In this document: piece after piece, positions 45,460 to 58,343 of the stretch
Layout of the letters: the number at the start of each line of letters is the position of its first letter
How positions within the stretch are numbered: position 1 is the first letter of the stretch
From: Glutamicibacter nicotianae
GTDB lineage: Bacteria; Actinomycetota; Actinomycetes; Actinomycetales; Micrococcaceae
Assembly: GCF_006539525.1 (NCBI RefSeq)
Contig: NZ_BJNE01000011.1
Span: forward strand, 1 to 64,000
Reading direction: 5' to 3'
Length of the DNA: 64,000 nucleotides
The notes under the pieces: model-generated
Seen by the model: the letters and a program-made list of their open reading frames with translations, nothing else
The model's database searches: none
Told to the model about the DNA's origin: nothing
Position numbers and translations under genes: made by a program

Positions 45460-48093
45460 ATGGCTCCTAAGAAGTCTGAAGAGATTCCAGCGGATTTCGT
45501 TGAAAATATCGTCGATATAGACGTCACCAATGAAATGGAATCATCCTTCTTGGAGTACGCCTACTCTGTCATCTACTCCCGTGCGCTTCCCGACGCCCGA
45601 GACGGCCTGAAGCCGGTTCAGCGGCGCATCCTGTTCCAAATGGCCCAGATGGGCTTGCGCCCCGAGAAGGGCCACGTCAAGTCGGCCCGCGTGGTCGGCG
45701 AGGTCATGGGCAAGCTGCATCCGCATGGCGACACCGCAATCTACGACGCCATGGTCCGTTTGGCCCAGGATTTCTCGCTGCGGCTTCCGCTGATCGACGG
45801 CCATGGCAACTTCGGTTCGCTCGATGACGGACCAGCAGCCCCGCGCTACACGGAGGCCCGCCTGGCAGCTTCTGCAGTCGCGATGACCGCAAATCTGGAT
45901 GAAGACGTCGTCAACTTCGTGCCGAACTACGACAACCAGTTCATGCAGCCAGAAGTGCTGCCCTCTGCGTTCCCGAACCTACTGGTCAATGGCACCACCG
46001 GCATTGCCGTGGGCATGGCCACCAATATGGCTCCGCACAATCTGGGCGAAGTTGTCGCCGCTGCGCAGCACCTGCTCAAGGAACCTGAAGCCACCGTCGA
46101 AGAGCTCATGAAGTTCATTCCGGGCCCGGATCTGCCGTCAGGTGGCAGCATCATCGGCTTGGACGGCATCAAGGATGCCTACCGCACCGGTCGCGGATTG
46201 TTCCGCACCCGGGCCACGGTGATCATGGAGAAGATTTCAGCACGCAAGTCGGGCCTCGTGGTCACCGAACTGCCATATGGCGTGGGTCCTGAAAAGGTCA
46301 TCGAGAAAATCAAGGATGGTGTCAACAGCAAGAAGATCTCCGGCATTTCCGATGTCGTGGACCTGACCGACCGGCATCACGGCCTGAAGCTGGTCATCGA
46401 GCTGAAGAACGGTTTCAACCCGAACGCCGTGCTTGCCAGCCTGTACAAGTACACCCCGATGGAAGATTCCTTCGGCATCAACAACGTTGCCCTGGTCGAT
46501 GGCCAGCCGCGCACCATGGGGCTGCGTGAGCTGCTGACCGTGTATGTGGACCATCGGATAGATGTAGTACGCCGCCGCACCGTGCACCGCCTGGCCAAGC
46601 GCGAGAACCGCCTGCACCTGGTTGAGGGCCTGCTCATTGCCATCGTTGATATTGACGATGTCATTGCCATCATCCGTTCTTCCGAGCAGACCGCTGAAGC
46701 ACGCGAACGCCTGATGACGGTCTTCGACCTGAGCGAACCGCAGGCCAGCCACATCCTGGAACTGAGGCTGCGCCAGCTGACCAAGTTCTCCAAGCTGGAG
46801 CTTGAAACCGAGGCCGAGCAGCTGCGCAACGAAATCGAGGAATTGCGCGCCATCCTGGAGTCCGACGAGCTGCTGCGCACCGTGGTTTCCAACGAACTCG
46901 GTGAAATGGCCGAGACCTTCGGCACACCGCGCCGGACCAAGCTGCTGAAGTCTGCCCAGCTGGCACCGCTGAAGGGCACCGCGCTGCCCGAAGAAGTCGG
47001 AACCGGCAAGAAGGCCAAGCTGGCGATGGAAGTATCCGATACCCCATGCTGGGTTCTGCTCTCTGCCACCGGGCAGATCGCCCGGACCCCCGATCGGCAG
47101 GCCGTGGATTACGCCGCGGCGCGCATCAAGCATGATGTGCTCACCTCGCAGGTCGCCTCCAGCGCCCGCGGAGAAATCGGCGCCCTGACATCTGCCGGCC
47201 GCATTATCCGCATCTCGCTGATCGATGTTCCGGTGCTCCCCGAGTCCCACGGCTTCCCGCAGCTGGCCCATGGCGTGCCGATCTCCGAATTCCTTAAGCT
47301 GGGCAAGGGCGAAAGCGCGGTGGCGCTGGTTCCGCTGAACCGGGTCCTTGCCATTGGCACGCAGAACGGCGTGGTCAAGCGCGTGAGCCCTGACTACCCG
47401 CTGAACCGTGACGAGTTCGAGGCGATTACGCTCAAGGACAAGGACGTGGTGATTGCCGCGGCACCGGCCGAAGACGCCGACGAGCTGGTGTTCATGACCA
47501 AGAACGCGCAGTTGCTGCGTTTCAGCGCTTCGGCCGTGCGCGCCCAGGGCCGCACCGGCCAAGGCATGGCGGGCATCAAGCTCGCTGCCGACGACCAGGT
47601 GATTTTCTTCGGAGTGGTCCCTGCCGGTGCCAGCGACGCCGTGGTAGCCACCATCGCTGCCGGTTCGCAAACCCTTCCTGGGACGTCGGGCCAGTCGGTG
47701 AAGCTCACCGATTTCTCCGAGTTCCCGGCCAAGGGCCGCGCCACCGCGGGCGTGCGGGCGCACCGTTTCGTCAAGGGCGAGGACCACCTGCAGCTGGCTT
47801 ATGCCGGCCAGGGCCCGGCACGCGCCAGTTCCACGGCGGGTGTGGTGCGTGCATTGCCTACCGAATACGGCAAACGCGATGGTTCGGGAGCCCCGTTGGC
47901 CCAATCAGTGAACATCATTGGCGGAGCCATCAGCGGAGGAGACGAAGCTCCGGCGGCACCCGCTGCCCAGGAACCCATCCCAGCCGCAGCACAGGAAGCG
48001 TTGATTCCCGAACCGGCCAAGGCCAAGCCAGCTCCCGCCATCACGCCGGGAGAAGATGCGCTGCCTTTTGATGACGGCGGCGTAATCCTCTGA
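45460..48093 (+). CDS. parC: DNA topoisomerase IV subunit A
   Basis: This 877-residue protein is the breakage-reunion subunit. [26 protein letters not shown] near residues 33-58, [12 protein letters not shown] near 84-95 (the quinolone region, with Thr at the position of E. coli GyrA Ser83), and APRYTEARL with the active-site Tyr near 131 are diagnostic. A beta-pinwheel C-terminal domain follows from about 510, and the last 60 residues are Ala/Pro/Glu rich. The partner parE gene lies 8 kb away, beyond the cytochrome bd island. ParC rather than GyrA is chosen because of this pairing and because no gyrB or dnaA region is nearby. Confidence 0.88.
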
Positions 48094-48130
48094 ACCGAAA
48101 TGCGCTAAGCCGTCAGCGCCAGAATTGAAC

Positions 48131-48175
48131 GCGGCGCCGTATCCCCCTTGCATTCCACTGCGGGCACGGCGCCGC
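48131..48175. terminator. Inverted repeat between parC and cydDC
   Basis: GCGGCGCCGT and ACGGCGCCGC pair over 10 bp around a 25-nt loop between two converging genes. Confidence 0.5.
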
Positions 48176-48179
48176 CGGT

Positions 48180-51100
48180 CTATACGCAGACGGCCGGCTT
48201 CCGGCTGCCGAGTTCAATGCGGTGGGTGCACTGCTCGGCGAGCTGCTGGTCATGGGTGATCATGACGACGGTTCGCCCGGCAAGGGCCTGACGCAAAGTC
48301 GAAAGCAGCCCTCGGGCCTCATCGACGCCGAGGTGGGCCGTGGGTTCATCGAGCAGGATGACCTGGTGGCCGCCTGCCAAGGCACGGGCTACGGCAAGCT
48401 TGCAGCGCTGTCCGCCAGAAAGCTGGTGCCCGCCGGATCCGATGCGTGTTTCGAGGCCTTCGGGCTGGGCCGCCAGCCAGTCCGCGAGCCCGACCTGCGC
48501 CAAGGACTCTTCCAGCTGGGCATCGCTGCGCTGATGGTCGTCATCGACTCCCAGCATCAGGTTCCGGCGAATCGACGAGTCGAACAGGTGCGCTTCTTGC
48601 GGGCACCACGCCACCGACGACAATTCTGCCCGCTGCAGATCCAGCAGGTTGCCCTGGGCATCGATTCCCTTCAGCCATCCCGAGTGCGCGGGCAACGCAC
48701 CGAGCAATGCGGTAAGCAATGTGGATTTGCCTGAGCCCGAAGGGCCGGTAATGGCCGTCCACTGACCCGCGGGAATGCGGGCGCTCAGATTCTCCACTAC
48801 CAATGGGCCATCGTCGTAACCGAGGCTGAGTGCTTGCGCTTCGTAGCCGGCAATCTTGCTCGGTCCCGCTGGGCGATTGTCCTGCGTTGCTGGTGCCGGG
48901 CCGCTGTGCATGCCGCGTTCGGCCAGCTTCGATGACAGTTCTCTCAGTGCCCGCCCCTGCTGCACCGCGAGCAAGGCATTTCCAGCGCTCTCCCCCAACG
49001 CCAGGCTCAAGAGCACGGCGAGCGCTGTATGGGATGCGCTGCTGTGCGACAACGCGGTGATGGCGATGGCAAGCAGCACGCTGGTCAGCGTGGCCAAGGC
49101 AGTGGCGCTACCTTGTCCTAACGCATGCCGGCGAGATTGTTGCGTATTGCGGGTTTCGTCCTCTTGGAATCGGCCCAGGATTCGTTCCAGCGCCTGGTTG
49201 CTGCGCAGCGCGGTCTTGTGCCGCAAGATTCCCAGCACGCTCTGGTTCATCTGCATCCGGTGGCGCAGCTGGAGCACGAAGTGCTCGCCTTCGATGCGCT
49301 GGACAAGCCAACGAACCGGGAAGACCAGCACCCCGAACGCACCAAAGGCAAGATAGCCGAACTCCGGCTGGATAATGCCCAGGGCCGCAGCAGCCGCCAT
49401 CCACAGTGCGATGGCCTGCAGTGGCGGGAACAGCACGCGGGCCAACAGGTCGCGCAGTTCATCCACCTCAGCCAGCAGGAATCGCAGGATGACCGAGGAA
49501 CGGCTGAGCAGGCCCCATCGTGCCGGGTTGGCCACCATGGCGTTCCACATCTTCTCGCGCAGATCAGCAGCGTAGGCCAGGACCGCGTCGTGGATTGCCA
49601 GTTGTTCCAGGTAGCGGAAGACCGCTCGCCCGATGCCGAGGGTGCGGACCATGACGAAAGCTACGGTCAGGTGGAGAATGGCTGGCTGATAGCTGGATTC
49701 AACGATCAGCCATCCGCTCAGCGCCGCGAGCGCCACGGCGCACAGCACGCTGGCGGTCCCCCAAAGCACCGCTTTCGGGGCGGCCTTGTAGCCCATGAGC
49801 AAATCGCGCGTCGGATTGAACCGGGAGTTCCCCGGCCCTGGGGCAGTTGCCTCCGGCTGGGTCTGCGCGGCATCTGGCTGCTGGTGGCCCATGGTCTGCC
49901 CGTGCGCCGCGGCATCGGCAGCTTCGGCGGCTTGTCCCGGATTCTGGCTCTGGCCAAAGGCTGGGTCGTGGCTGGCGAGCAGCATGGCGCAGCGGGCAGG
50001 CAATTCGCCCAGCAGTTCGCGCACTGCCCGGGCGTTGGCCTCGTCAAGGTGCGCGGTGGGCTCGTCGGCCAGCAGCACGGTGCAGTCATCGTCGCTATGG
50101 ATCCGCAGCAGTGCACGCAGGACTTCCAGTCGGCGCAGCTCTCCGGGCGAGTATTCTCCAATTGGGCGGTCGAGCATGGTGTGCAGCGACAGCCGGGTGC
50201 TGAGCTCTTCGCGCAATTCTGCAGGTGCTGCCGGGGCATCCTGGTCAAGTTGTTCGCTGCCTGTCATTGCGTTGAATGCAGGATGCTGGCTGATCATGGC
50301 CAGCTGGCCGGCAACGAAGATCCGTCCGCTAGCGAGAGCCGGGTCGAAGGTGTTGTCGCTGCTGTGCGCCTCGGCGATCAGCTTGAGCAGCGTGCTCTTG
50401 CCCGTGCCGCTTGCCGTGGACAGCACGAGCCGTTCGCCGGCACGCAATTGGATATCCACGGCGTGGTGGATTGGATGCTCGCCATCGTAGCTGAACTGCA
50501 GATCCGAGACTTCCAGGAGGTTCTGCGGATTATTTGCGGTGCCAGCCCGCAGCTGATGGGCCGGGATGGGTGCGGTGAGGGCCGTGTACTTCTGGTAGGC
50601 GGCCAGCCCGTCATCGGCCGCATGATAGGCGGAGCCCACTTCGCGCAGTGCGGAGAACAGCTCTGGTGCCAGGATCAGGATGATCAGCCCGGAGGCGAGA
50701 TCCATATTTCCGCCGACCAGCCTCACGCCGATCATTACCGCGAGGACCGCCACCGAGAGGGTCGAGATCAGTTCCAGCCAGAAGCTGGACATGAAGACGG
50801 TCTTCAGGTTGGCCATGGTGGCCGCCCGGTACTTGTTGCTCACTGCCGCGATGGCGTTGCCATGGGCGCGAGCCCGGCCAAGTCCCAGCAGCGCCGGCAG
50901 GCCCTGGGCCAGTTCGTAGAGCTGATGGGCAAGCCGGTCGAGGGTGGCTTGGGATTCATTGAGGGTGTCCTGGGTGTGCAGGCCGATCAGCGCCATGAAC
51001 ACCGGGACCAGCGGGATGGTCAGGACCAGCACCACCGCGCTGATCCAGTCCAGCTGGAGGATGAAGATGCCAAGCAGCAGCGGTACGGCCACCGCGCCAA

Positions 51101-51509
51101 TGAACGCAGGGATGAATTTGGTGAAGTAGTCATCTAGCTTCTCCAGGCCATGGCTGGCCAGGGTCGCGGTGACCGGTATGGACTGCTGTTCCGCTGCGGG
51201 GGCGATAGCCGGCTGCGCCGCTTGCCTGCGGACCAGGTTCAACCGCAAGCGTTCCTTTGCACCCAGGCCCATGCGCCGGGCTCCTGCATTCAAGCCCCAC
51301 GCGCTGAGTGCTCGAAGCGCGGCCCCGGCTAATGCCAGGACCAGCAACTGCGGTTCATTGGCGCCCCCCGCGGCCATGGTGGCGATCCATTGGCCCAGGG
51401 CGTAGGCGACGAGGACCAGCCCCGCGACCTTGAGCGCTGAGTACAGCGCCAAGACCAGGAATTGTCGTGGCGTGATCAGTTCACGCGGCAGGAATCGCGG
51501 GGTTGGCAT
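48180..51509 (-). CDS. cydDC: Fused CydD-CydC thiol reductant ABC exporter
   Basis: This 1109-residue protein is a complete heterodimeric ABC exporter in one chain: membrane domain 1 (about 15-310), ATPase 1 (about 330-540), a Gln/Ala/Pro-rich linker (about 540-590), membrane domain 2 (about 590-880) and ATPase 2 (about 890-1105). CydDC exports glutathione/cysteine (in other bacteria) or haem and is needed to assemble cytochrome bd. ATPase 2 is canonical (GPSGSGKST, LSGGQR, ILLDEPTAHL); ATPase 1 is degenerate (STASGTGKST, signature YSPGELRR), as expected for one inactive site. I chose ATG 51509 with a GGAAAGAG site. Confidence 0.93.
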   Translation of the reverse strand: MPTPRFLPRELITPRQFLVLALYSALKVAGLVLVAYALGQWIATMAAGGANEPQLLVLALAGAALRALSAWGLNAGARRMGLGAKERLRLNLVRRQAAQPAIAPAAEQQSIPVTATLASHGLEKLDDYFTKFIPAFIGAVAVPLLLGIFILQLDWISAVVLVLTIPLVPVFMALIGLHTQDTLNESQATLDRLAHQLYELAQGLPALLGLGRARAHGNAIAAVSNKYRAATMANLKTVFMSSFWLELISTLSVAVLAVMIGVRLVGGNMDLASGLIILILAPELFSALREVGSAYHAADDGLAAYQKYTALTAPIPAHQLRAGTANNPQNLLEVSDLQFSYDGEHPIHHAVDIQLRAGERLVLSTASGTGKSTLLKLIAEAHSSDNTFDPALASGRIFVAGQLAMISQHPAFNAMTGSEQLDQDAPAAPAELREELSTRLSLHTMLDRPIGEYSPGELRRLEVLRALLRIHSDDDCTVLLADEPTAHLDEANARAVRELLGELPARCAMLLASHDPAFGQSQNPGQAAEAADAAAHGQTMGHQQPDAAQTQPEATAPGPGNSRFNPTRDLLMGYKAAPKAVLWGTASVLCAVALAALSGWLIVESSYQPAILHLTVAFVMVRTLGIGRAVFRYLEQLAIHDAVLAYAADLREKMWNAMVANPARWGLLSRSSVILRFLLAEVDELRDLLARVLFPPLQAIALWMAAAAALGIIQPEFGYLAFGAFGVLVFPVRWLVQRIEGEHFVLQLRHRMQMNQSVLGILRHKTALRSNQALERILGRFQEDETRNTQQSRRHALGQGSATALATLTSVLLAIAITALSHSSASHTALAVLLSLALGESAGNALLAVQQGRALRELSSKLAERGMHSGPAPATQDNRPAGPSKIAGYEAQALSLGYDDGPLVVENLSARIPAGQWTAITGPSGSGKSTLLTALLGALPAHSGWLKGIDAQGNLLDLQRAELSSVAWCPQEAHLFDSSIRRNLMLGVDDDHQRSDAQLEESLAQVGLADWLAAQPEGLETRIGSGGHQLSGGQRCKLAVARALAGGHQVILLDEPTAHLGVDEARGLLSTLRQALAGRTVVMITHDQQLAEQCTHRIELGSRKPAVCV

Positions 51510-51535
51510 TGCTACTCTTTCCGTCGAAAACGCAG

Positions 51536-52561
51536 TTACTTGATGATCGAGACGACACGATGGGTGTCGGGAATATGCTCTTCGCGCAAGCGCTTGCGGA
51601 ATACCCAGTAGCTCCACGCCTGGTAGGCCAGGACCATCGGCACGCCAAAGGCAGCGACGATGCTCATGAGCTTCAAGGTGTAGGCCGTGCTTGACGCGTT
51701 GGCCACGGTGAGATCGAAGGCCGGGTCAATGGTCGACGGCAGCACCACCGGGTAAGCGGCGGTGAAGATCGCGGCAACTCCGGCCAACAGGGTGACTCCC
51801 AGCGCGATGAAGGAAACTCCTTCGCGTCCAGCGCGTCCGCTGATCATCGATGCAGCCAGGGCGATGACCGCCAGGCCCATCACTGCCCATGCGATGCCGG
51901 AGTCGTTATCCAGCAGCACCAGCAGTGCCCACGCAACCAGGGGCAGGATTGCTACCGGCAGCCAGCGGCCTACGAGCTTGCCTGCTTCGTGGCGGACCGC
52001 ACCGTCGGTTTTCAACCGCAGGAAAGCCAATGCATGGATCCAGCAGAACGCCACCACCGCTACGCCACCGAGAATGGCATGCCAATTCAGCCAGGCGAAG
52101 GCTCCGCCGATCCGGTCCCCGTTCTCATTCAAGGGCAACCCCAAGGTGGTCAACGCCAGCATGGCTCCGACGCCGAAGGCAGCGACCAACGATCCGAGGC
52201 CCAAGGCCAGATCCCATGCTTTCCGGGTTGCGGCGGTGATCGCCTTGCCCCGGTATTCGATGGCCACAGCACGGAAGATCAATGCCACCAGGACAATGGT
52301 CAACGGAATGTAGAGTGCCGAGAACAGCGAGGCGTACCAGTGCGGGAAGGCGGCGAAGGTCGCGCCACCGGCGGTCAGCAGCCACACTTCGTTGCCGTCC
52401 CAGACCGGGCCAATGGTATTCAGCAAGAGGCGCTTGCGTTTCTCAGTGGAACGTCCAAGCCCGATGAGCATGCCGACCCCGAGGTCGAAGCCTTCAAGGA
52501 AGAGATAGCCGCACCAGAGCAGCGCTATCACAACGAACCAAAGTGTTGGAAGCCAATCCAT
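51536..52561 (-). CDS. cydB: Cytochrome bd oxidase subunit II
   Basis: This 341-residue membrane protein has eight or so hydrophobic segments; it begins MDWLPTLWFVVIALLWCGYLFLEGFDLGVGM, with the conserved ExFDxG near residue 25, and has GNEVWLLTAGGATFAAFP near 56-73. These fit CydB. It starts at ATG 52561 with AAGGAGA 7 nt upstream, 24 bp after cydA, and is followed by the cydDC gene 26 bp later. Confidence 0.96.
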   Translation of the reverse strand: MDWLPTLWFVVIALLWCGYLFLEGFDLGVGMLIGLGRSTEKRKRLLLNTIGPVWDGNEVWLLTAGGATFAAFPHWYASLFSALYIPLTIVLVALIFRAVAIEYRGKAITAATRKAWDLALGLGSLVAAFGVGAMLALTTLGLPLNENGDRIGGAFAWLNWHAILGGVAVVAFCWIHALAFLRLKTDGAVRHEAGKLVGRWLPVAILPLVAWALLVLLDNDSGIAWAVMGLAVIALAASMISGRAGREGVSFIALGVTLLAGVAAIFTAAYPVVLPSTIDPAFDLTVANASSTAYTLKLMSIVAAFGVPMVLAYQAWSYWVFRKRLREEHIPDTHRVVSIIK

Positions 52562-52585
52562 TGAAATTCTCCTTCGTCCGTTCCG

Positions 52586-54184
52586 CTAGTAGGCGAATGC
52601 CAGTACGTCGTCATCATCGTTGTCAGGCCCCTTAGGGCCTCCGGATGACGAATGATCTGCCGCTTCGAGCTCCGGCATTGCCGATGCCACGCCGCCTCGG
52701 ATGTAGCGAGTGAGCAGGACCAGTTCCACAACCAGCAGCACGCCATAGATTGCAGTGAGCGAGATCAGCGAGAACAGCATTTCTCCTGCAGTGACGGTCG
52801 GAGAGACCGAGGCCGCGGTATACATGAACACCTGGTCCACCCCGCCCATCTGCGGGTTAGGCGCAACGGTGAACGGCTGCCTGCCCATTTCGGTGAAAAT
52901 CCAGCCAGTGGCGTTGGCGCCGAAGGGTGCGGCGATGCCCAATACCGCCAGTCTCGAAAGCCATTTGCTTTCCGGGACGGTGCCCTTGCGGGTGATCCAC
53001 AGCGCGACACCGGCTGCCAGTGCCGAGAGTCCGCCCAGAGTGATCATCAAGCGGAAGCCCCAGTAGGTCACTTCCATCACGGGCAGGTAGTTGATTTCCT
53101 GGCCCGCGTACTGGCCGAAGGACTCATCGCTTGGATAGTACTTGCCGTATTTTTCCTGGTATTCCGGAATCAGGGTATTCACGCCCTTGATTTCGGTGGT
53201 GAAATCTCCGTTGGCCAGGTACGAGAGAATGCCCGGAATTTCGAAGACAGCTACGACGTTGTCGCAGTTGGTTGCGCCTTGGGCGGTGATATCGCCCAAC
53301 GACAGCACGGAGAAGCCGGTACCATCATGGCAAGCTGCCTCTGCCGCTGCCATTTTCATCGGCTGCTGTTCGAACATCAGCTTTGCTTGCTCGTGCCCGC
53401 TCAGAGCAACACCGAGAAAGGCGACCATGGCTACCGAAGCACCGATGCGCAGTGACTTAATCCAGACCTGGTAGTCGGTCTTGTCGCGGTTCTTGCCGCG
53501 GTTTGGGTCTTCACCCACGACTACATATCCGTTGGCATCCACGGTGTCGATGCCTTCCTTGCGGCGGCGGTAGAGGTGGAACCAGGAGATGCCCAGCAAG
53601 AAGCCGCCGGCAACGGCGAAGGCGCCGAAGATGGTGTGCGGGAAGGTCACGAGCGCAGTGTTGTTGGTGAACACCGCCCATGCGTCGGTCATCACGGCAC
53701 GGCCGTCAACTAATTTCGTTCCGACCGGGTGCTGCATCCACGAGTTCGCAACGAGGATGAAGTAGGCCGAAAGGATCGTCGCCAAGGAAGCGCACCAGAT
53801 CGTTGCCAGGTGGACACGCTTGGGTAGCTTCTTCCAGCCGAAGATCCAGAGCCCCAGGAAGGTGGATTCCACGAAGAAAGCCAGCAGGGCTTCCATGGCC
53901 AACGGCGCACCGAAAACGTCGCCAACATAGCGGCTGTATTCGCTCCAGGCCATGCCGAATTGGAACTCTTGGACGATGCCCGTGGCAACGCCCATGATGA
54001 AGTTGATGAGGAAAAGCTTTCCCCAGAATTTTGTCATTCGCAGCCAGTGTTCGTTGCCGGTGCGATGCCACATGGTTTGCAATGTGGCCACGGTCAAGCC
54101 CAGTCCAATGGTCAGGGGCACCATCAAGAAGTGGTAGACCGTCGTAATGCCGAATTGCCAGCGGGCAATCTCTAGAGCATCCAT
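52586..54184 (-). CDS. cydA: Cytochrome bd oxidase subunit I
   Basis: This 532-residue protein binds haems b558, b595 and d and oxidises quinol. It shows the N-terminal ARWQFGITTVYHFLMVPLTIG with the haem-ligand His near 18, the GWIFTEMGRQPF motif near 435, and a Q-loop of the short type. The start ATG 54184 follows GAGGAATCC. It is the first gene of the leftward operon cydA-cydB-cydDC, which makes the bd oxidase and its assembly exporter. Two inverted repeats of a BlaI-like type lie within 105 bp upstream. Confidence 0.96.
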   Translation of the reverse strand: MDALEIARWQFGITTVYHFLMVPLTIGLGLTVATLQTMWHRTGNEHWLRMTKFWGKLFLINFIMGVATGIVQEFQFGMAWSEYSRYVGDVFGAPLAMEALLAFFVESTFLGLWIFGWKKLPKRVHLATIWCASLATILSAYFILVANSWMQHPVGTKLVDGRAVMTDAWAVFTNNTALVTFPHTIFGAFAVAGGFLLGISWFHLYRRRKEGIDTVDANGYVVVGEDPNRGKNRDKTDYQVWIKSLRIGASVAMVAFLGVALSGHEQAKLMFEQQPMKMAAAEAACHDGTGFSVLSLGDITAQGATNCDNVVAVFEIPGILSYLANGDFTTEIKGVNTLIPEYQEKYGKYYPSDESFGQYAGQEINYLPVMEVTYWGFRLMITLGGLSALAAGVALWITRKGTVPESKWLSRLAVLGIAAPFGANATGWIFTEMGRQPFTVAPNPQMGGVDQVFMYTAASVSPTVTAGEMLFSLISLTAIYGVLLVVELVLLTRYIRGGVASAMPELEAADHSSSGGPKGPDNDDDDVLAFAY

Positions 54185-54222
54185 GGATTCCTCAACTATC
54201 GTGGGATGGAATGTAAACCGCT

Positions 54223-54241
54223 TTTCTACGTTTCGTAGAAA
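54223..54241. promoter_or_regulatory. Operator site 1 near cydA, 8-3-8 inverted repeat
   Basis: TTTCTACG-TTT-CGTAGAAA is a perfect 8-bp inverted repeat (extended to 10 bp on both sides), 38 nt upstream of the cydA start. It is a likely site for the BlaI-type repressor encoded at 54584. Confidence 0.65.
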
Positions 54242-54266
54242 AGACCTCCAAGGACAGAATAGATGA

Positions 54267-54285
54267 TTTCGACAGCTTGTAGAAA
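54267..54285. promoter_or_regulatory. Operator site 2 near cydA
   Basis: TTTCGACA-GCT-TGTAGAAA has the same form as site 1 with one mismatch between its arms. Its centre is 44 bp from that of site 1, about four helix turns. A -10-like TATTCT on the cydA strand lies 18 bp from a TTTCTA inside it, so it may overlap the cydA -35. Confidence 0.55.
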
Positions 54286-54463
54286 TCGACGGGATTAGCA
54301 GGTTTCGCCGGCTGCAAATTTCAACACCGCGGGCGCGAGCGCAAATACTAAGCCTATTGACAGGGTTGTGTCTACGGCTCTTAAAAAACCCAAGTCAACA
54401 AGTTTCACCCGGGACATTCGCATAACGCGCAGCGAAACTGCTAAAGCCTGTACTCACCCATCT

Positions 54464-54482
54464 CTTTTACGCTCCGTAGAAA
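54464..54482. promoter_or_regulatory. Operator site 3 near the BlaI-type gene
   Basis: CTTTTACG-CTC-CGTAGAAA shares the right arm and the 3-bp centre of site 1, with two mismatches in the left arm. It overlaps the probable -35 of the repressor gene (see 54476-54505). Confidence 0.55.
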
Positions 54483-54505
54483 TATTTTGGAAAGATGGCT
54501 ACAAT
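54476..54505 (+). promoter_or_regulatory. Probable promoter of the blaI-like gene
   Basis: GTAGAA (54476-54481) and TACAAT (54500-54505) are 18 bp apart; the first overlaps operator site 3. The start codon at 54584 is about 70 nt beyond the expected transcription start. Confidence 0.4.
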
Positions 54506-54583
54506 TAAGAGCCCAAGCAGTCTGCATGCTCTCGCTGAGTGCAAGCAACCGCGTTAGAACTAATGCAAGTGAGGTACGACCTA

Positions 54584-54955
54584 GTGGCCAGCCTTGGCGA
54601 TCTGGAACGCTCCGTCATGGATCTTCTGTGGGATTCCGCAGAACCACTCACCGCGAATGACCTTCGTGATGATTTGGCGGCGCTTGGCACCGACGCGAAA
54701 GAACTCGCAGTAACGACGGTGCTGACCGTGCTAGCACGTCTCGAGAAGAAGGGTCTGGTGGAGCGCGAGCGCACTACCCGCCCTCACCGATACGCAGCTT
54801 CATCCTCCCGTGAGGATCACACCGTTGGACTGCTCAACGACGCACTGGGCACCGCCCAGGACCGTGAAGCAGTCTTGGCACGATTCATTGGAGGCATCTC
54901 CCCCGACGAAGCAGCTTCCCTGCGTGCTATCTTGGACTCAGTAAAGTCCGCATAA
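54584..54955 (+). CDS. BlaI/MecI/CopY family transcriptional repressor
   Basis: This 123-residue winged-helix repressor begins MASLGDLERSVMDLLWD, matching the family start, so GTG 54584 (site GAGG 9 nt upstream) is preferred to earlier starts at 54539 and 54563. The recognition helix lies near 37-52 (DAKELAVTTVLTVLARLEKKG). The C-terminal dimer domain contains LARFIGG near 98-104; the Arg-Phe there is at about the place of the protease-cut Asn-Phe of S. aureus BlaI, which is an inference. It is followed by an M56 protease gene, the usual partner. Three matching inverted repeats lie upstream and in front of cydA. Confidence 0.92.
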   Translation: MASLGDLERSVMDLLWDSAEPLTANDLRDDLAALGTDAKELAVTTVLTVLARLEKKGLVERERTTRPHRYAASSSREDHTVGLLNDALGTAQDREAVLARFIGGISPDEAASLRAILDSVKSA

Positions 54956-54978
54956 TTTAGATGAACTTCGGGGACTGA

Positions 54979-55941
54979 GTGCTTCTCACCTCATATTTCC
55001 TAGCGGCGTTGGCTATCGCATTGGCGTGGCCGACGCCGTTGGCTTTATCCAAGGCGAATTGGACCGCGCGCTCACCAGTGCAAGCGGTACTCCTGTGGCA
55101 AGCCATTGCTTTAGGCGGTGGCCTTTCCATGATCGGCTCAATGCTTGTCTGGGGCTTGGACCCACTGGGCGATGATCTGATCTCCGCGCTGCATGGTGGA
55201 TGGCTCCTACTGACAGGAGACACGAGTGTGCCCTACCCCGGCATCGTGCACCTCTTCGCCTTGAGCACAGCTCTGCTCTTCGGTTTCCACCTGGTATTGA
55301 CCCTCATGCGCGCTGCTTGGCGCACCTCCCGCCAACGAGCCAAGCACCGACAGCTACTTCGCCTGTTGAGCAACCCCTCGCAGACGAGCGCGAACACCTT
55401 GGTGATCGATCATGATATGCCCGTGGCATACTGCGTGCCCGGCATCTCGCAGTCGGTGACCGTGCTGTCACGGGGATTGCTCACCCAGCTTTCGGCTCAA
55501 GAGCAGCAGGCGGTCATCGCCCATGAACGCTCCCATTTGGATCAACGGCATGATTTGCTAATCCTGGCCTTCACGGCCTGGCACGAAGCGTTGCCCTGGC
55601 TGCCGACCTCACGGCTTGGACTCGATGCAGTGCGCCAACTGATCGAAATGCTGGCCGACGACAAAGCGCTGGAAAAGGCCAATCGGCAGACGCTGCTCAA
55701 AGCCATCGTCACTGTGGCCACCGCAGCGACCATGGATGACCGCTCGTCAACGCCTCATGCCTCTAGCGCCGGTCTGGTTGGCATGCCCGATGGCGAAGTA
55801 TCATCCCGCAGGCTCAAGCGCTTGCTCTCCCCGCAAGATCCGCTGAGCCGCCCGCAACGGGCACTGGTGCTGCTGAGCACCATCATGCTGATGGTCTGCC
55901 CGACAGTTCTGCTCATAGCGCCACGGCTGCTGGACTGGTAG
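54979..55941 (+). CDS. M56 family (BlaR-like) membrane metallopeptidase
   Basis: This 320-residue protein has three N-terminal membrane segments (about 3-22, 38-58, 88-110), the zinc-peptidase motif HERSH at 182-186 with a downstream acidic ligand in IEMLADD near 222-227, and one C-terminal membrane segment near 293-316. It is like the protease half of BlaR1/MecR1 but lacks their extracytoplasmic penicillin-binding domain of about 250 residues, so its signal is unlikely to be a beta-lactam bound in that way. It starts at GTG 54979, 23 bp after the repressor gene, and would cleave that repressor. Confidence 0.9.
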   Translation: MLLTSYFLAALAIALAWPTPLALSKANWTARSPVQAVLLWQAIALGGGLSMIGSMLVWGLDPLGDDLISALHGGWLLLTGDTSVPYPGIVHLFALSTALLFGFHLVLTLMRAAWRTSRQRAKHRQLLRLLSNPSQTSANTLVIDHDMPVAYCVPGISQSVTVLSRGLLTQLSAQEQQAVIAHERSHLDQRHDLLILAFTAWHEALPWLPTSRLGLDAVRQLIEMLADDKALEKANRQTLLKAIVTVATAATMDDRSSTPHASSAGLVGMPDGEVSSRRLKRLLSPQDPLSRPQRALVLLSTIMLMVCPTVLLIAPRLLDW

Positions 55942-55956
55942 CACCCGCTCGATCCC

Positions 55957-56005
55957 ATGCAACGACGTCCTTGAACCCCAGTGGAGCTCAAGGACGTCGT
56001 TGCAT
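55957..56005. terminator. Bidirectional terminator, M56 peptidase / parE
   Basis: A perfect 18-bp inverted repeat (55957-55974 with 55988-56005) lies between the two converging genes. Confidence 0.8.
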
Positions 56006-56013
56006 CTGCGGTT

Positions 56014-58122
56014 CTAAACGTCGATGCGTTCCCGTTCAAGATCGTCGGCGCCGTCGATGATGAACTTCTTGCGCGGTGCCACATCCGAGCCCATCAGCAG
56101 GTCGAAGACTTCTTCGGCTGCCTGCGCATGCTCGATGCCAACACGGCGCAGCATGCGATGGCGTGGATCCATGGTGGTTTCAGCCAGCTGGTCTGCATCC
56201 ATCTCGCCCAGGCCCTTATAGCGCTGGATCGGCTCCTTGTAGCGTCGGCCTTCCTTCTCCAAGCTGGCCAGCAGCTTGGTCATTTCCGTCTCAGAGTAGG
56301 TGTAGATGACTTCGTTCTGCTTGGCGCCCGGATTAATTACCTCGATGCGGTGCAACGGCGGGACCGCCGCATAGACGCGACCGTGCTCAATCATCGGACG
56401 CATATAGCGATAGAACAGCGTCAGCAGCAGGGTGCGAATGTGCGCACCGTCAACGTCAGCATCGGTCATCAGGATAATCTTGCCGTATCGCGCTTGCTCG
56501 ATGTCGAAGCTGCGGCCCGAACCAGCACCTATCACCTGGATCATCGCTGCGCACTCAGCATTGGAGAGCATGTCCGAGATCGACGCCTTTTGCACATTGA
56601 GGATCTTGCCACGAATCGGCAACAACGCCTGGTACTCGCTGGAGCGTGCAAGTCGGGCAGTGCCCAATGCGCTGTCGCCCTCGACGATGAACAGTTCGGA
56701 TTTGCCGACTTCCTTGCTCCGGCAATCAAGCAGTTTGGTTGGCAGCGACGAGGATTCCAAAGCCGTCTTGCGACGCTGGGTTTCCTTATGCATGCGTGCC
56801 GACACACGAGACTTCATCTCGTTGACGACCTTCTCCATCAGCGTGGAGGCTTCAGCCTTTTCGTTGCGTTTGCTGGAGCCCAGACGATCATTGAGCGCCT
56901 TTTCCAGCACCTTGGAAACAATCTGGCGCACTTGTGGGGTGCCCAAAATTTCCTTGGTCTGGCCCTCGAACTGGGGCTCGGCCAATCGGACGGTCAGCAC
57001 GGCAGTCAGGCCGGCCAGAACGTCGTCCTTTTCCAGCTTGTCCTTCTGGCCGAACTTGAGCTTGCGCGCGTTGGCCTCGATATTCTTGCGGAAGGACTTG
57101 AGCAGGGCCTGCTCGAAGCCTGCGGTATGCGTACCGCCCTTGGGTGTCGCAATAATATTGACGAAGCTGCGCAGCGTGGTTTCGTAGCCGATCCCCCAGC
57201 GGACCGCCACGTCCACTTCGCAGACACGCTGCACATCTTCAATATGGCTGCGGCCGTTGCTGTCGATGACCGGAACCTTTTCATGGAAGGAACCGCTGCC
57301 GTGGAAGCGCCAGATGTCGGTAACCGGTGAATCGCTGCTCAGGTAGTCAACGAATTCGCTAATGCCGCCGTCGTGCTGGAACACTTCCTCATGAGGTCCG
57401 TCTGCGCCCGGAGTGTCCGGCAGTCCGCGTTCATCACGCAGGGTGATGCGCAGCCCCGGGACCAGGAAGGAGGTTTGGCGGGCGCGATCCTGCAATTCCT
57501 TATAGGAGAATTTCGCATCCGGGGTGAAGATATGGCTGTCGGCCCAGTATCGAATGCGCGTTCCGGTTACGCCGCGTTTGGCTTTGCCGATAATTCCCGG
57601 AGGCGTTGCGGTCTCATGGGCCTTGAACGCCGCATCGGCTTTCTTGCGTCCCTTATCGGTAAATTTGCCTGGTTCGCCACGACGGAACTGCAAGCCGTAG
57701 GTTTTGCCGCCGCGGTCAACTTCCACGTCCAAGCGGGCCGACAGAGCATTTACTACTGAGGCACCCACGCCGTGCAGGCCGCCGGATGCGCTGTAGGAGC
57801 CACCGCCGAACTTGCCACCGGCGTGCAGTTTGGTGAAGACGACTTCCAAACCGCTCAGCCCAGTCTTGGGTTCAACATCCACGGGGATGCCACGGCCATC
57901 GTCTTGGACTTCGACCGAGCCGTCAGAGTGCAAGATGACATCAATGGCCTGCCCAAACCCGCCTAACGCCTCGTCAACAGAGTTATCGATGATCTCCCAG
58001 AGGCAATGCATCAAGCCACGGGAGTCGGTGGAGCCGATGTACATGCCTGGTCGCTTACGAACTGCTTCCAGGCCTTCCAATACGGAAAGGTGCCGGGCAC
58101 TGTAATTGTCGGATGAAGCCAC
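56014..58122 (-). CDS. parE: DNA topoisomerase IV subunit B
   Basis: This 702-residue GHKL ATPase has YSARHLSVLEGLEAVRKRPGMYIGST near the N-terminus, DNSVDEALGG (ATP/Mg), QDDGRGIPVD, GGLHGVGASVVNALS (lid), and the TOPRIM motif FIVEGDSALGTA near 440. The C-terminus PIQRYKGLGEMDADQLAETTMD is typical. The frame opens at ATG 58146, but an AGGAG lies inside this extension, 11 nt before GTG 58122, which I prefer. The partner parC is 8 kb away at 45460. ParE is favoured over GyrB for that reason. Confidence 0.88.
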   Translation of the reverse strand: MASSDNYSARHLSVLEGLEAVRKRPGMYIGSTDSRGLMHCLWEIIDNSVDEALGGFGQAIDVILHSDGSVEVQDDGRGIPVDVEPKTGLSGLEVVFTKLHAGGKFGGGSYSASGGLHGVGASVVNALSARLDVEVDRGGKTYGLQFRRGEPGKFTDKGRKKADAAFKAHETATPPGIIGKAKRGVTGTRIRYWADSHIFTPDAKFSYKELQDRARQTSFLVPGLRITLRDERGLPDTPGADGPHEEVFQHDGGISEFVDYLSSDSPVTDIWRFHGSGSFHEKVPVIDSNGRSHIEDVQRVCEVDVAVRWGIGYETTLRSFVNIIATPKGGTHTAGFEQALLKSFRKNIEANARKLKFGQKDKLEKDDVLAGLTAVLTVRLAEPQFEGQTKEILGTPQVRQIVSKVLEKALNDRLGSSKRNEKAEASTLMEKVVNEMKSRVSARMHKETQRRKTALESSSLPTKLLDCRSKEVGKSELFIVEGDSALGTARLARSSEYQALLPIRGKILNVQKASISDMLSNAECAAMIQVIGAGSGRSFDIEQARYGKIILMTDADVDGAHIRTLLLTLFYRYMRPMIEHGRVYAAVPPLHRIEVINPGAKQNEVIYTYSETEMTKLLASLEKEGRRYKEPIQRYKGLGEMDADQLAETTMDPRHRMLRRVGIEHAQAAEEVFDLLMGSDVAPRKKFIIDGADDLERERIDV

Positions 58123-58343
58123 TGAGCTGTTGTCTCCTACTTGCATGAGAAAGTACGTCTTGCTTCATATTCTAATCGTTAATGTGTTCGAATACCCGCT
58201 ATTTTCCGGTGCTGGCGGGCACGCCGGGCAGGTATGAGCTTATCCACATGCGCTACGCGGTGAGCGAAAGAACAGCCAATTCGGGATAAAGTCGGGATCC
58301 AAGCTGGTTGTATAGAGTAACCATCAACTTTAGGAGGCTGGCA

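What the first reader, a model, noticed from the sequence alone, without database searches (positions are those of the whole stretch)
54185..55941. A BlaI repressor and a sensor-less BlaR protease appear to control cytochrome bd
The cydA-cydB-cydDC operon is divergent from a BlaI-type repressor gene and an M56 membrane protease gene. Three 8-3-8 inverted repeats related to TTTCTACG-N3-CGTAGAAA lie in the shared 399 bp. BlaI-family proteins bind such short dyads, and M56 proteases release them by cleavage. The protease here lacks the penicillin-binding domain, so the signal is probably not a beta-lactam; it could be the respiratory state, haem, quinone or membrane stress. Control of a terminal oxidase by such a pair would be an uncommon form of respiratory regulation.
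Basis: partly seen in the sequence, partly recalled or inferred. Interest (0 to 1): 0.8.

Follow-up and report, generated by a model that had tools for sequence, protein, structure and literature searches.

The report
BlaI-protease switch for respiration genes
A gene pair of the kind known for switching on penicillin resistance appears here, and in many relatives, to control the backup respiratory oxidase together with genes for haem, cytochromes and nitric-oxide defence, which points to respiration rather than antibiotics as its job.

Summary
A BlaI-type repressor gene and a 320-aa M56 protease gene without a penicillin-binding domain are divergent from cydA-cydB-cydDC. The dyads between them are real: four matches in 64 kb, all in this gap, 0.08 expected. 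The conserved core is TTCTAC-N5-GTAGAA. All 30 family loci examined (the window's own included) hold a perfect copy, with 55 different spacers in 76 dyads. Genomes with the repressor average 5.3 perfect dyads, those without 0.38. Where cydA and blaI are unlinked, dyads remain. A variant dyad precedes cydA in 6 of 6 genomes of another family.

Control looks wider than proposed: the dyad also stands before hmp, hemQ, hemH, ctaB, ctaE-qcr, SURF1, a ctaA operon, cytochrome c maturation, a copC cluster and perhaps ATP synthase. Best reading: BlaI represses a respiration/haem regulon that the sensor-less protease releases on a respiratory, haem or copper cue. Binding, cleavage and cue are inferred.

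Not wholly new: papers report M. tuberculosis BlaI at cyd and atp promoters, and cyanobacterial PetR/PetP is a close analogue. New are the conserved, broad regulon and the evidence that respiration is its main business.

The parts
54584..54955 (+). blaI repressor gene (ORF opens at GTG 54539; likely start GTG 54584)
   Evidence: ORF; PF03965 E 1.7e-20; only solved structure matched is 2g9w, 76.8 bits (recalled as M. tuberculosis BlaI, the record says conserved hypothetical protein); only PF03965 match in the genome
54979..55941 (+). sensor-less M56 (BlaR1-type) membrane zinc protease gene, 320 aa, HERSH at residues 182-186, E223xxxD227
   Evidence: AlphaFold model pLDDT 90, best PDB matches S. 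aureus BlaR1; only PF05569 match in the genome
52586..54184 (-). cydA, cytochrome bd subunit I
   Evidence: PF01654 E 7.4e-151
51536..52561 (-). cydB, cytochrome bd subunit II
   Evidence: PF02322 E 2.9e-94
48180..51617 (-). fused cydD-cydC exporter gene
   Evidence: TIGR02857 residues 52-553 and TIGR02868 residues 616-1123
54223..54241 (.). dyad 1, TTTCTACG-TTT-CGTAGAAA, perfect, 38 bases between it and the cydA start
   Evidence: kept in all four other same-genus loci
54267..54285 (.). dyad 2, core TTCGACAGCTTGTAGAA with 1 mismatch
   Evidence: same one-mismatch form in all five loci of the genus
54464..54482 (.). dyad 3, blaI-proximal, core TTTTACGCTCCGTAGAA with 1 mismatch; overlaps a promoter-like -35
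   Evidence: same one-mismatch form in all five loci of the genus
54477..54505 (+). promoter-like TAGAAA-17-TACAAT for blaI overlapping dyad 3 (consensus match only)
   Evidence: 2 sites found in 501 bases against a mean of 0.5 in shuffles
54369..54387 (.). weak fourth dyad, probably not functional
   Evidence: 3 mismatches; found in one of four other same-genus loci

Best explanation
BlaI (54584-54955) dimers bind TTCTAC-N5-GTAGAA dyads and repress cydABDC, their own operon and a dispersed set of genes for haem, cytochrome oxidase assembly, cytochrome c maturation, NO detoxification and copper handling. The membrane M56 protease, which has no beta-lactam sensor, cleaves BlaI when respiration is impaired (candidate cues: loss of haem-copper oxidase function, copper or haem shortage, NO), freeing the regulon so that the copper-free bd oxidase and new cytochromes are made. 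Supported by comparative sequence evidence: the dyad, its link to BlaI, and the target set. Inferred: binding, repression, cleavage, and the nature of the signal.
For: Dyads far above chance. 30 loci, the best 30 of 94 BlaI matches and including the window's own: all have a perfect dyad and a downstream M56, 29 have divergent cydA; 76 dyads with 55 different spacers, reverse complements merged. 87 BlaI+ genomes average 5.3 perfect dyads (84 of 87 have >=2), 13 BlaI- genomes 0.38; reversed-pattern control 0.41 and 0.15. M56 shows the same presence/absence as BlaI but for G087, 85% complete. In G004 and G035 cydA and blaI are on different contigs: cydA has two dyads in each, and blaI has one (fetched for G004; by coordinates for G035). 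Of the 13 BlaI- genomes eight have cydA; four keep one cydA dyad and these four have a diverged BlaI (48-52 bits) with an adjacent HExxH protein; the other four have no PF03965 match and no cydA dyad. In ten relatives (four genera) I fetched all 36 perfect sites outside cyd and blaI: 25 are at hemQ, hmp, cytochrome c maturation, PNPOx-like, qcrC, a copC-cluster membrane gene or a globin-like gene, 9 at two recurrent unknown membrane proteins, 2 unresolved. A clostridial BlaI motif has 6-mer arms five bases apart (PMC8457756 passages). Mtb BlaI reported at cyd and atp promoters (PMC5473688; PMC12565901).
Against: No binding, expression or cleavage data for this organism. At looser thresholds the dyad is not enriched genome-wide: 14 versus 11 control at <=3 mismatches of the 19-mer, 94 versus 217 control at <=2 mismatches of the 17-mer; at <=1 mismatch four relatives have 17-20 against 9-15 control, so single one-mismatch sites need conservation to be believed. 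In G051 5 and in G094 6 of 16 fetched sites outside the cyd gap match no target of the set. The atp site is identical, spacer included, in G000, G051 and G094, so another constraint is possible. BlaI may act as activator at some targets (ctaE dyad about 120 bp upstream). Protease match to BlaR1 has low global TM (0.35).
Confidence: 0.78

Rival explanations
1. The pair is a cell-wall or beta-lactam stress switch, as in staphylococci and as named in mycobacteria, and cyd is co-induced because antibiotics disturb respiration.
For: Family names; passages say Mtb BlaI represses blaC and that beta-lactam treatment raises blaI-blaR and cydAB (PMC12565901; PMC5473688). One own-genome site lies inside an ORF that I read as MltG-like, a cell-wall gene, and the atp site lies beside a wecA-like gene (names by my reading).
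Against: No penicillin-binding domain. I recognised no beta-lactamase or PBP gene next to the 15 own-genome sites at <=1 mismatch or the 36 sites fetched in ten relatives; this is by reading ORFs, with Pfam for some of them, not a family search of every neighbour.
Confidence: 0.08
2. The pair is a copper switch like cyanobacterial PetR/PetP: the protease reads copper and the regulon swaps copper-dependent and copper-free oxidase.
For: PetR/PetP are BlaI- and BlaR1-type and respond to copper (PMC7896320; PMC12292863; PMC13421787). Targets include a CopC cluster, SURF1, CtaA and CtaB. In copper-poor medium Mtb delta-sigC shows raised cyd and atp genes, and the passage counts blaI among the regulators touched (PMC7924339).
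Against: hmp, hemQ, hemH and cytochrome c maturation are not copper genes. BlaI here has no cysteine, so no CopY-type metal site in the repressor itself.
Confidence: 0.3
3. Another regulator (for example the Rrf2/NsrR-like protein beside hmp) binds the dyads and BlaI is a bystander.
For: An Rrf2-family gene lies next to the hmp dyad.
Against: Dyads sit at blaI's own promoter even when cyd is elsewhere (L116) and follow presence of BlaI across 100 genomes.
Confidence: 0.06

Closest known systems
M. tuberculosis BlaI (Rv1846c)/BlaR (Rv1845c)
   Same: 2g9w, recalled as its structure, is the only solved match for this BlaI alone (76.8 bits) and by far the best for the nine-sequence profile (168 bits). 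BlaR without sensor; BlaI reported at cyd and ATP synthase promoters (PMC5473688 passages; PMC12565901 passages).
   Different: In the passages I saw it is treated chiefly as the blaC/beta-lactam regulator; here blaI-M56 is beside cyd and the predicted set is haem, oxidase assembly, NO and cytochrome c genes. The primary regulon paper (Sala 2009) was not held.
PetR/PetP of Synechocystis
   Same: BlaI-type factor plus BlaR1-type protease choosing between electron-transfer proteins of different metal need (PMC7896320, part 1 of 2 read).
   Different: Targets plastocyanin/cytochrome c6, copper cue, PetR both represses and activates; four-protein regulon; other phylum. Not compared by sequence here.
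S. aureus BlaI-BlaR1 and MecI-MecR1
   Same: Protease: 8exs, 8exq, 8exp are the top three PDB matches, E 1.0e-4 to 5.2e-4, same HExxH...ExxxD signature (PMC9834060 passages). Repressor: profile matches MecI and S. aureus BlaI at 28-32 bits.
   Different: No extracellular penicillin sensor; no beta-lactamase target recognised; low global TM-score (0.35), rmsd 15-20 A, 12-13% identity.
CopY-type copper repressors
   Same: Weak match to the CopY model; both recalled as BlaI/CopY-type repressors.
   Different: CopY model score 24.8 against a cut-off of 121.95; no cysteine in this protein.

Membership tests
BlaI/MecI repressor family (PF03965) | Pfam match above curated cut-off | tested here: met
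   74 bits against 22.6
BlaI/MecI repressor family (PF03965) | binds paired inverted CTAC/GTAG-type half sites at its own promoter | tested here: inconclusive
   Sites present and conserved; binding not tested
BlaI/MecI repressor family (PF03965) | cleavable by partner protease | not testable with these tools
   The MecI segment LNFVE aligns with the invariant F of this family; the MecI/BlaI cleavage position is recalled
M56 / BlaR1 protease | HExxH and ExxxD zinc signature in a membrane protein | tested here: met
   H182, E183, H186, E223, D227 in 30 of 30 family loci; in named loci 78 of 78 (HEH) and 77 of 77 aligned rows (E, D); HExxH in 77 of 77 extracted proteins; model and PDB match
M56 / BlaR1 protease | extracellular penicillin-binding sensor domain (BlaR1 proper) | tested here: not met
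   320 aa, no such domain; 294-421 aa, median 306, in 77 named relatives
Mycobacterial BlaI/BlaR pair | repressor closest to Rv1846c, sensor-less protease next door, cyd and atp targets | tested here: inconclusive
   Closest solved structure 2g9w and sensor-less M56; cyd strongly, atp weakly supported; orthology by tree not tested
PetR/PetP-type copper switch | copper-dependent activity | not testable with these tools
   Only gene content suggests copper (CopC, SURF1)
CopY-type copper repressor | cysteine metal site (recalled) | tested here: not met
   no cysteine in the protein

The most novel reading that the evidence does not exclude
BlaI plus sensor-less M56 is an old actinobacterial respiratory-homeostasis system that runs the whole cytochrome economy (bd oxidase, haem a and haem b synthesis, bc1-aa3 assembly, cytochrome c maturation, NO defence), and its beta-lactam role is a later or side use. 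The protease senses the state of the respiratory membrane directly, perhaps through the conserved cysteine 152 (AYC-x-PG), on a predicted beta-strand (residues 150-153) ahead of the zinc-binding helix.
Probability: 0.35. Interest if true: 0.82.

Novelty: new variant of a known kind. Interest (0 to 1): 0.64.

Why it matters
How actinobacteria decide between the efficient haem-copper oxidase and the emergency bd oxidase is a practical question, since bd oxidase helps mycobacteria tolerate respiratory drugs (established knowledge). If a BlaI/M56 pair sets this choice across the class, a protein pair filed under penicillin resistance becomes a respiratory sensor, the unexplained sensor-less BlaR proteases gain a job, and several unknown membrane proteins gain a context. 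The predictions can be tested in harmless soil bacteria.

Tried and rejected
Loose dyad scans of the own genome (<=3 mismatches of the 19-mer; <=2 of the 17-mer) are not enriched over the reversed pattern, so only 0-1 mismatch sites supported by position or relatives are used. The fourth dyad at 54369 is set aside (one of four same-genus loci). Own site C1:159628 lies inside an ORF and is treated as chance. In relatives L109 and L120 are counted as unresolved (L120 has only a 31% match to the copC-neighbour protein; L113, of a genome not counted among the ten, is like L109). A first spacer count (61 in 76) did not merge reverse complements; the merged count is 55. The pattern for the f6 cydA sites was fixed after seeing the sequences. 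No RNA family was found in 48000-58200. Rex control of cyd was not tested. Genomes put down as BlaI-negative at E <= 1e-15: four of 13 proved to have a diverged BlaI, and four more (G005, G033, G068, G083; none with cydA) have weak partial PF03965 matches of 20.6-23.3 bits, G005 and G083 at or just over the cut-off.

Literature: ten searches; among the rows listed I saw no paper on a BlaI/M56 regulon of respiration outside mycobacteria and cyanobacteria. Several listings were cut, the library is partial and lacks Sala 2009. Fifteen papers were opened, by passages except PMC7896320 (part 1 of 2); PMC8265638, PMC11561320, PMC10581053, PMC4301838 and PMC4757040 gave nothing that I use, and PMC5874750 only repeats the atp link.

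Full report
What is there. The cydA-cydB-cydDC operon (minus strand, 48180-54184) and a blaI-M56 operon (plus strand, 54539 or more likely 54584 to 55941) are divergent. The genome has one PF03965 match and one PF05569 match, both here. The gap contains three good dyads (54223, 54267, 54464) and one weak one; the 19-mer is expected 0.08 times in 64 kb at the tolerance used and is found four times, all here. The blaI-proximal dyad overlaps a promoter-like -35 element (consensus match only).

Conservation. The dyad core is TTCTAC-N5-GTAGAA. I examined 30 loci, the best 30 of 94 BlaI matches in 100 genomes of the family, the window's own locus included. All 30 have M56 after blaI, 29 have cydA divergent (L049 does not), and all 30 have at least one perfect dyad within 500 bp upstream of blaI. 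Arms stay, spacers vary: 55 different spacers in 76 dyads, reverse complements merged. In the genus two of the three dyads carry the same single mismatch in all five loci. M56 is present in 86 of 100 and BlaI in 87 of 100 genomes, with the same absences except G087, which is 85% complete.

Link between dyad and repressor. Perfect dyads per genome: mean 5.3 in 87 BlaI+ genomes (84 have two or more; G044, G061 and G090 have 1, 1 and 0), 0.38 in 13 BlaI- genomes; the reversed pattern gives 0.41 and 0.15 (Mann-Whitney p 1.2e-8, genomes not independent). In G004 and G035 cydA and blaI lie on different contigs: cydA keeps two dyads in both, and blaI keeps one (fetched in G004; by coordinates in G035). 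In G042 and G066 a cydA-like gene with no blaI within its fetched locus has two. Of the 13 BlaI- genomes eight have cydA. Four (G011, G041, G065, G088) keep one perfect dyad at cydA, and these four turn out to have a diverged BlaI (48-52 bits) followed by an HExxH protein with a weak M56 match. The other four (G002, G036, G059, G081) have no PF03965 match at E <= 0.001 and no cydA dyad. The remaining five lack cydA; four of them have only weak partial PF03965 matches.

Beyond the family. In 246 genomes drawn from the phylum, 24 have a match at E <= 1e-15, so close relatives are patchy. In six genomes of family f6 (mycobacteria-like by my judgement) the fetched cydA locus holds no blaI, yet TACTAC-N5-GTCGTA lies 33-60 bp upstream of cydA in 6 of 6, with 0 matches in 12,000 shuffles; the pattern was fixed after seeing the sites. 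In the Micromonospora type the order is blaI-M56-cydA on one strand. A dyad-like site (<=2 mismatches) lies upstream of cydA in 18 of the 30 (my count of the rows).

The regulon. In the own genome 15 sites are within one mismatch. Three are in the cyd-blaI gap; one lies inside an ORF. The other 11 are at hmp, a pyridoxamine-oxidase-like gene, a copC gene cluster, ctaE-qcrCAB, DUF3099 (with SURF1 nearby), a second SURF1, an ABC-ABC-ctaA operon, ctaB, a 116-aa membrane protein beside sucB, a DUF308 protein, and the region between wecA-like and ATP synthase genes (wecA, atp and ABC names by my reading). G051 (same genus) has a site at 10 of these 11 genes, G094 (another genus) at 9 of 11: the second SURF1 is missing in both and DUF308 in G094 (my count). 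Against that, 5 of the 16 sites of G051 and 6 of the 16 of G094 outside the cyd gap match none of these targets or the haem genes named below. In ten relatives of four genera I fetched all 36 perfect sites outside cyd and blaI: 10 hemQ, 5 hmp, 4 at the YceI / histidine phosphatase-ResA-CcdA-ResB junction, 2 PNPOx-like, 2 qcrC, 1 copC-cluster membrane gene, 1 globin-like, 7 a 105-142-aa membrane protein next to DUF308, 2 the sucB-side membrane protein, 2 unresolved (ResA, CcdA, ResB and globin by my reading, the globin-like protein has no Pfam match). G051 and G023 also have a site 7-8 bp before hemH, and G094 one between hemA and a hemE-like gene.

Mechanism. By analogy with BlaI-BlaR1 (established family knowledge) the protease cuts the repressor. 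The M56 model is confident (pLDDT 90, pTM 0.85), its best solved matches are S. aureus BlaR1 structures (E 1.0e-4 to 5.2e-4, but global TM 0.35 and rmsd 15-20 A), and the zinc signature is complete. No sensor domain is present. BlaI has no cysteine, so the cue is more likely read by the protease. Cysteine 152 is present in 30 of 30 family loci, 78 of 78 named loci, 4 of 4 diverged ones (there with other flanking residues) and 18 of 23 phylum rows that include paralogues: a lead, not a finding. The invariant phenylalanine of BlaI aligns with that of the MecI segment LNFVE, where cleavage is recalled.

Known work. PMC5473688 (passages) says that Mtb BlaI binds the cyd and ATP synthase promoters, citing Sala 2009, and that mycobacterial BlaR lacks the sensor. 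PMC12565901 (passages) shows BlaI binding at the Rv1303-atp promoter. PMC7924339 (passages) reports cyd and atp genes raised in delta-sigC in copper-poor medium and counts blaI among the regulators touched. PMC7058343 (passages) finds blaR needed for growth on haem iron in transposon data. PMC8457756 (passages) gives a clostridial BlaI motif of inverted GTCTAT repeats five bases apart. PMC7896320 (part 1 of 2), PMC12292863 and PMC13421787 (passages) describe PetR/PetP. PMC9834060 (passages) gives the BlaR1 motifs. So the kind is known and the cyd link has a precedent; the conserved regulon and the neighbourhood are what this adds.

Limits. Everything here is comparative. One-mismatch sites are not far above the number expected by chance (17-20 against 9-15 in four relatives) and rest on conservation. 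The atp site is identical including the spacer in the compared genomes, which weakens it as a footprint. Direction of control at each target is unknown.

Noticed in passing
own genome C2:307148 (L020); relatives L088, L096, L100, L104, L108, L111, L126: A dyad recurs beside a DUF308 membrane protein and a 105-142-aa membrane protein of unknown function: likely unnamed regulon members.
   Followed up: partly
own genome C11:68955 (L024:6992-7342), L106, L112, L181, L198: A 115-120-aa membrane protein (the own copy has no Pfam match) beside sucB has a dyad 19-62 bp upstream in three genera.
   Followed up: partly
L091, L095, L098, L103: The dyad at the cytochrome c maturation operon lies about 2 kb from a rex-like gene (name by my reading), so the NADH sensor and BlaI targets are neighbours.
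   Followed up: no
window 54979-55941 (M56 residue 152): A cysteine in AYC-x-PG ahead of HExxH is nearly invariant in these sensor-less proteases.
   Followed up: partly
genomes G012, G042, G066, G089 (genus g13): These carry 9-15 perfect dyads, about two to three times the family mean; the extra targets were not examined.
   Followed up: no
own genome C7, L022:4057-5010: The ABC ATPase gene before ctaA has an in-frame stop at codon 125 in this assembly, while the relative L179 has an open frame; real loss or sequence error not settled.
   Followed up: no
window 48180-51617: CydD and CydC are one polypeptide of up to 1145 aa; the ORF start overlaps cydB, so the true start is probably later.
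   Followed up: no
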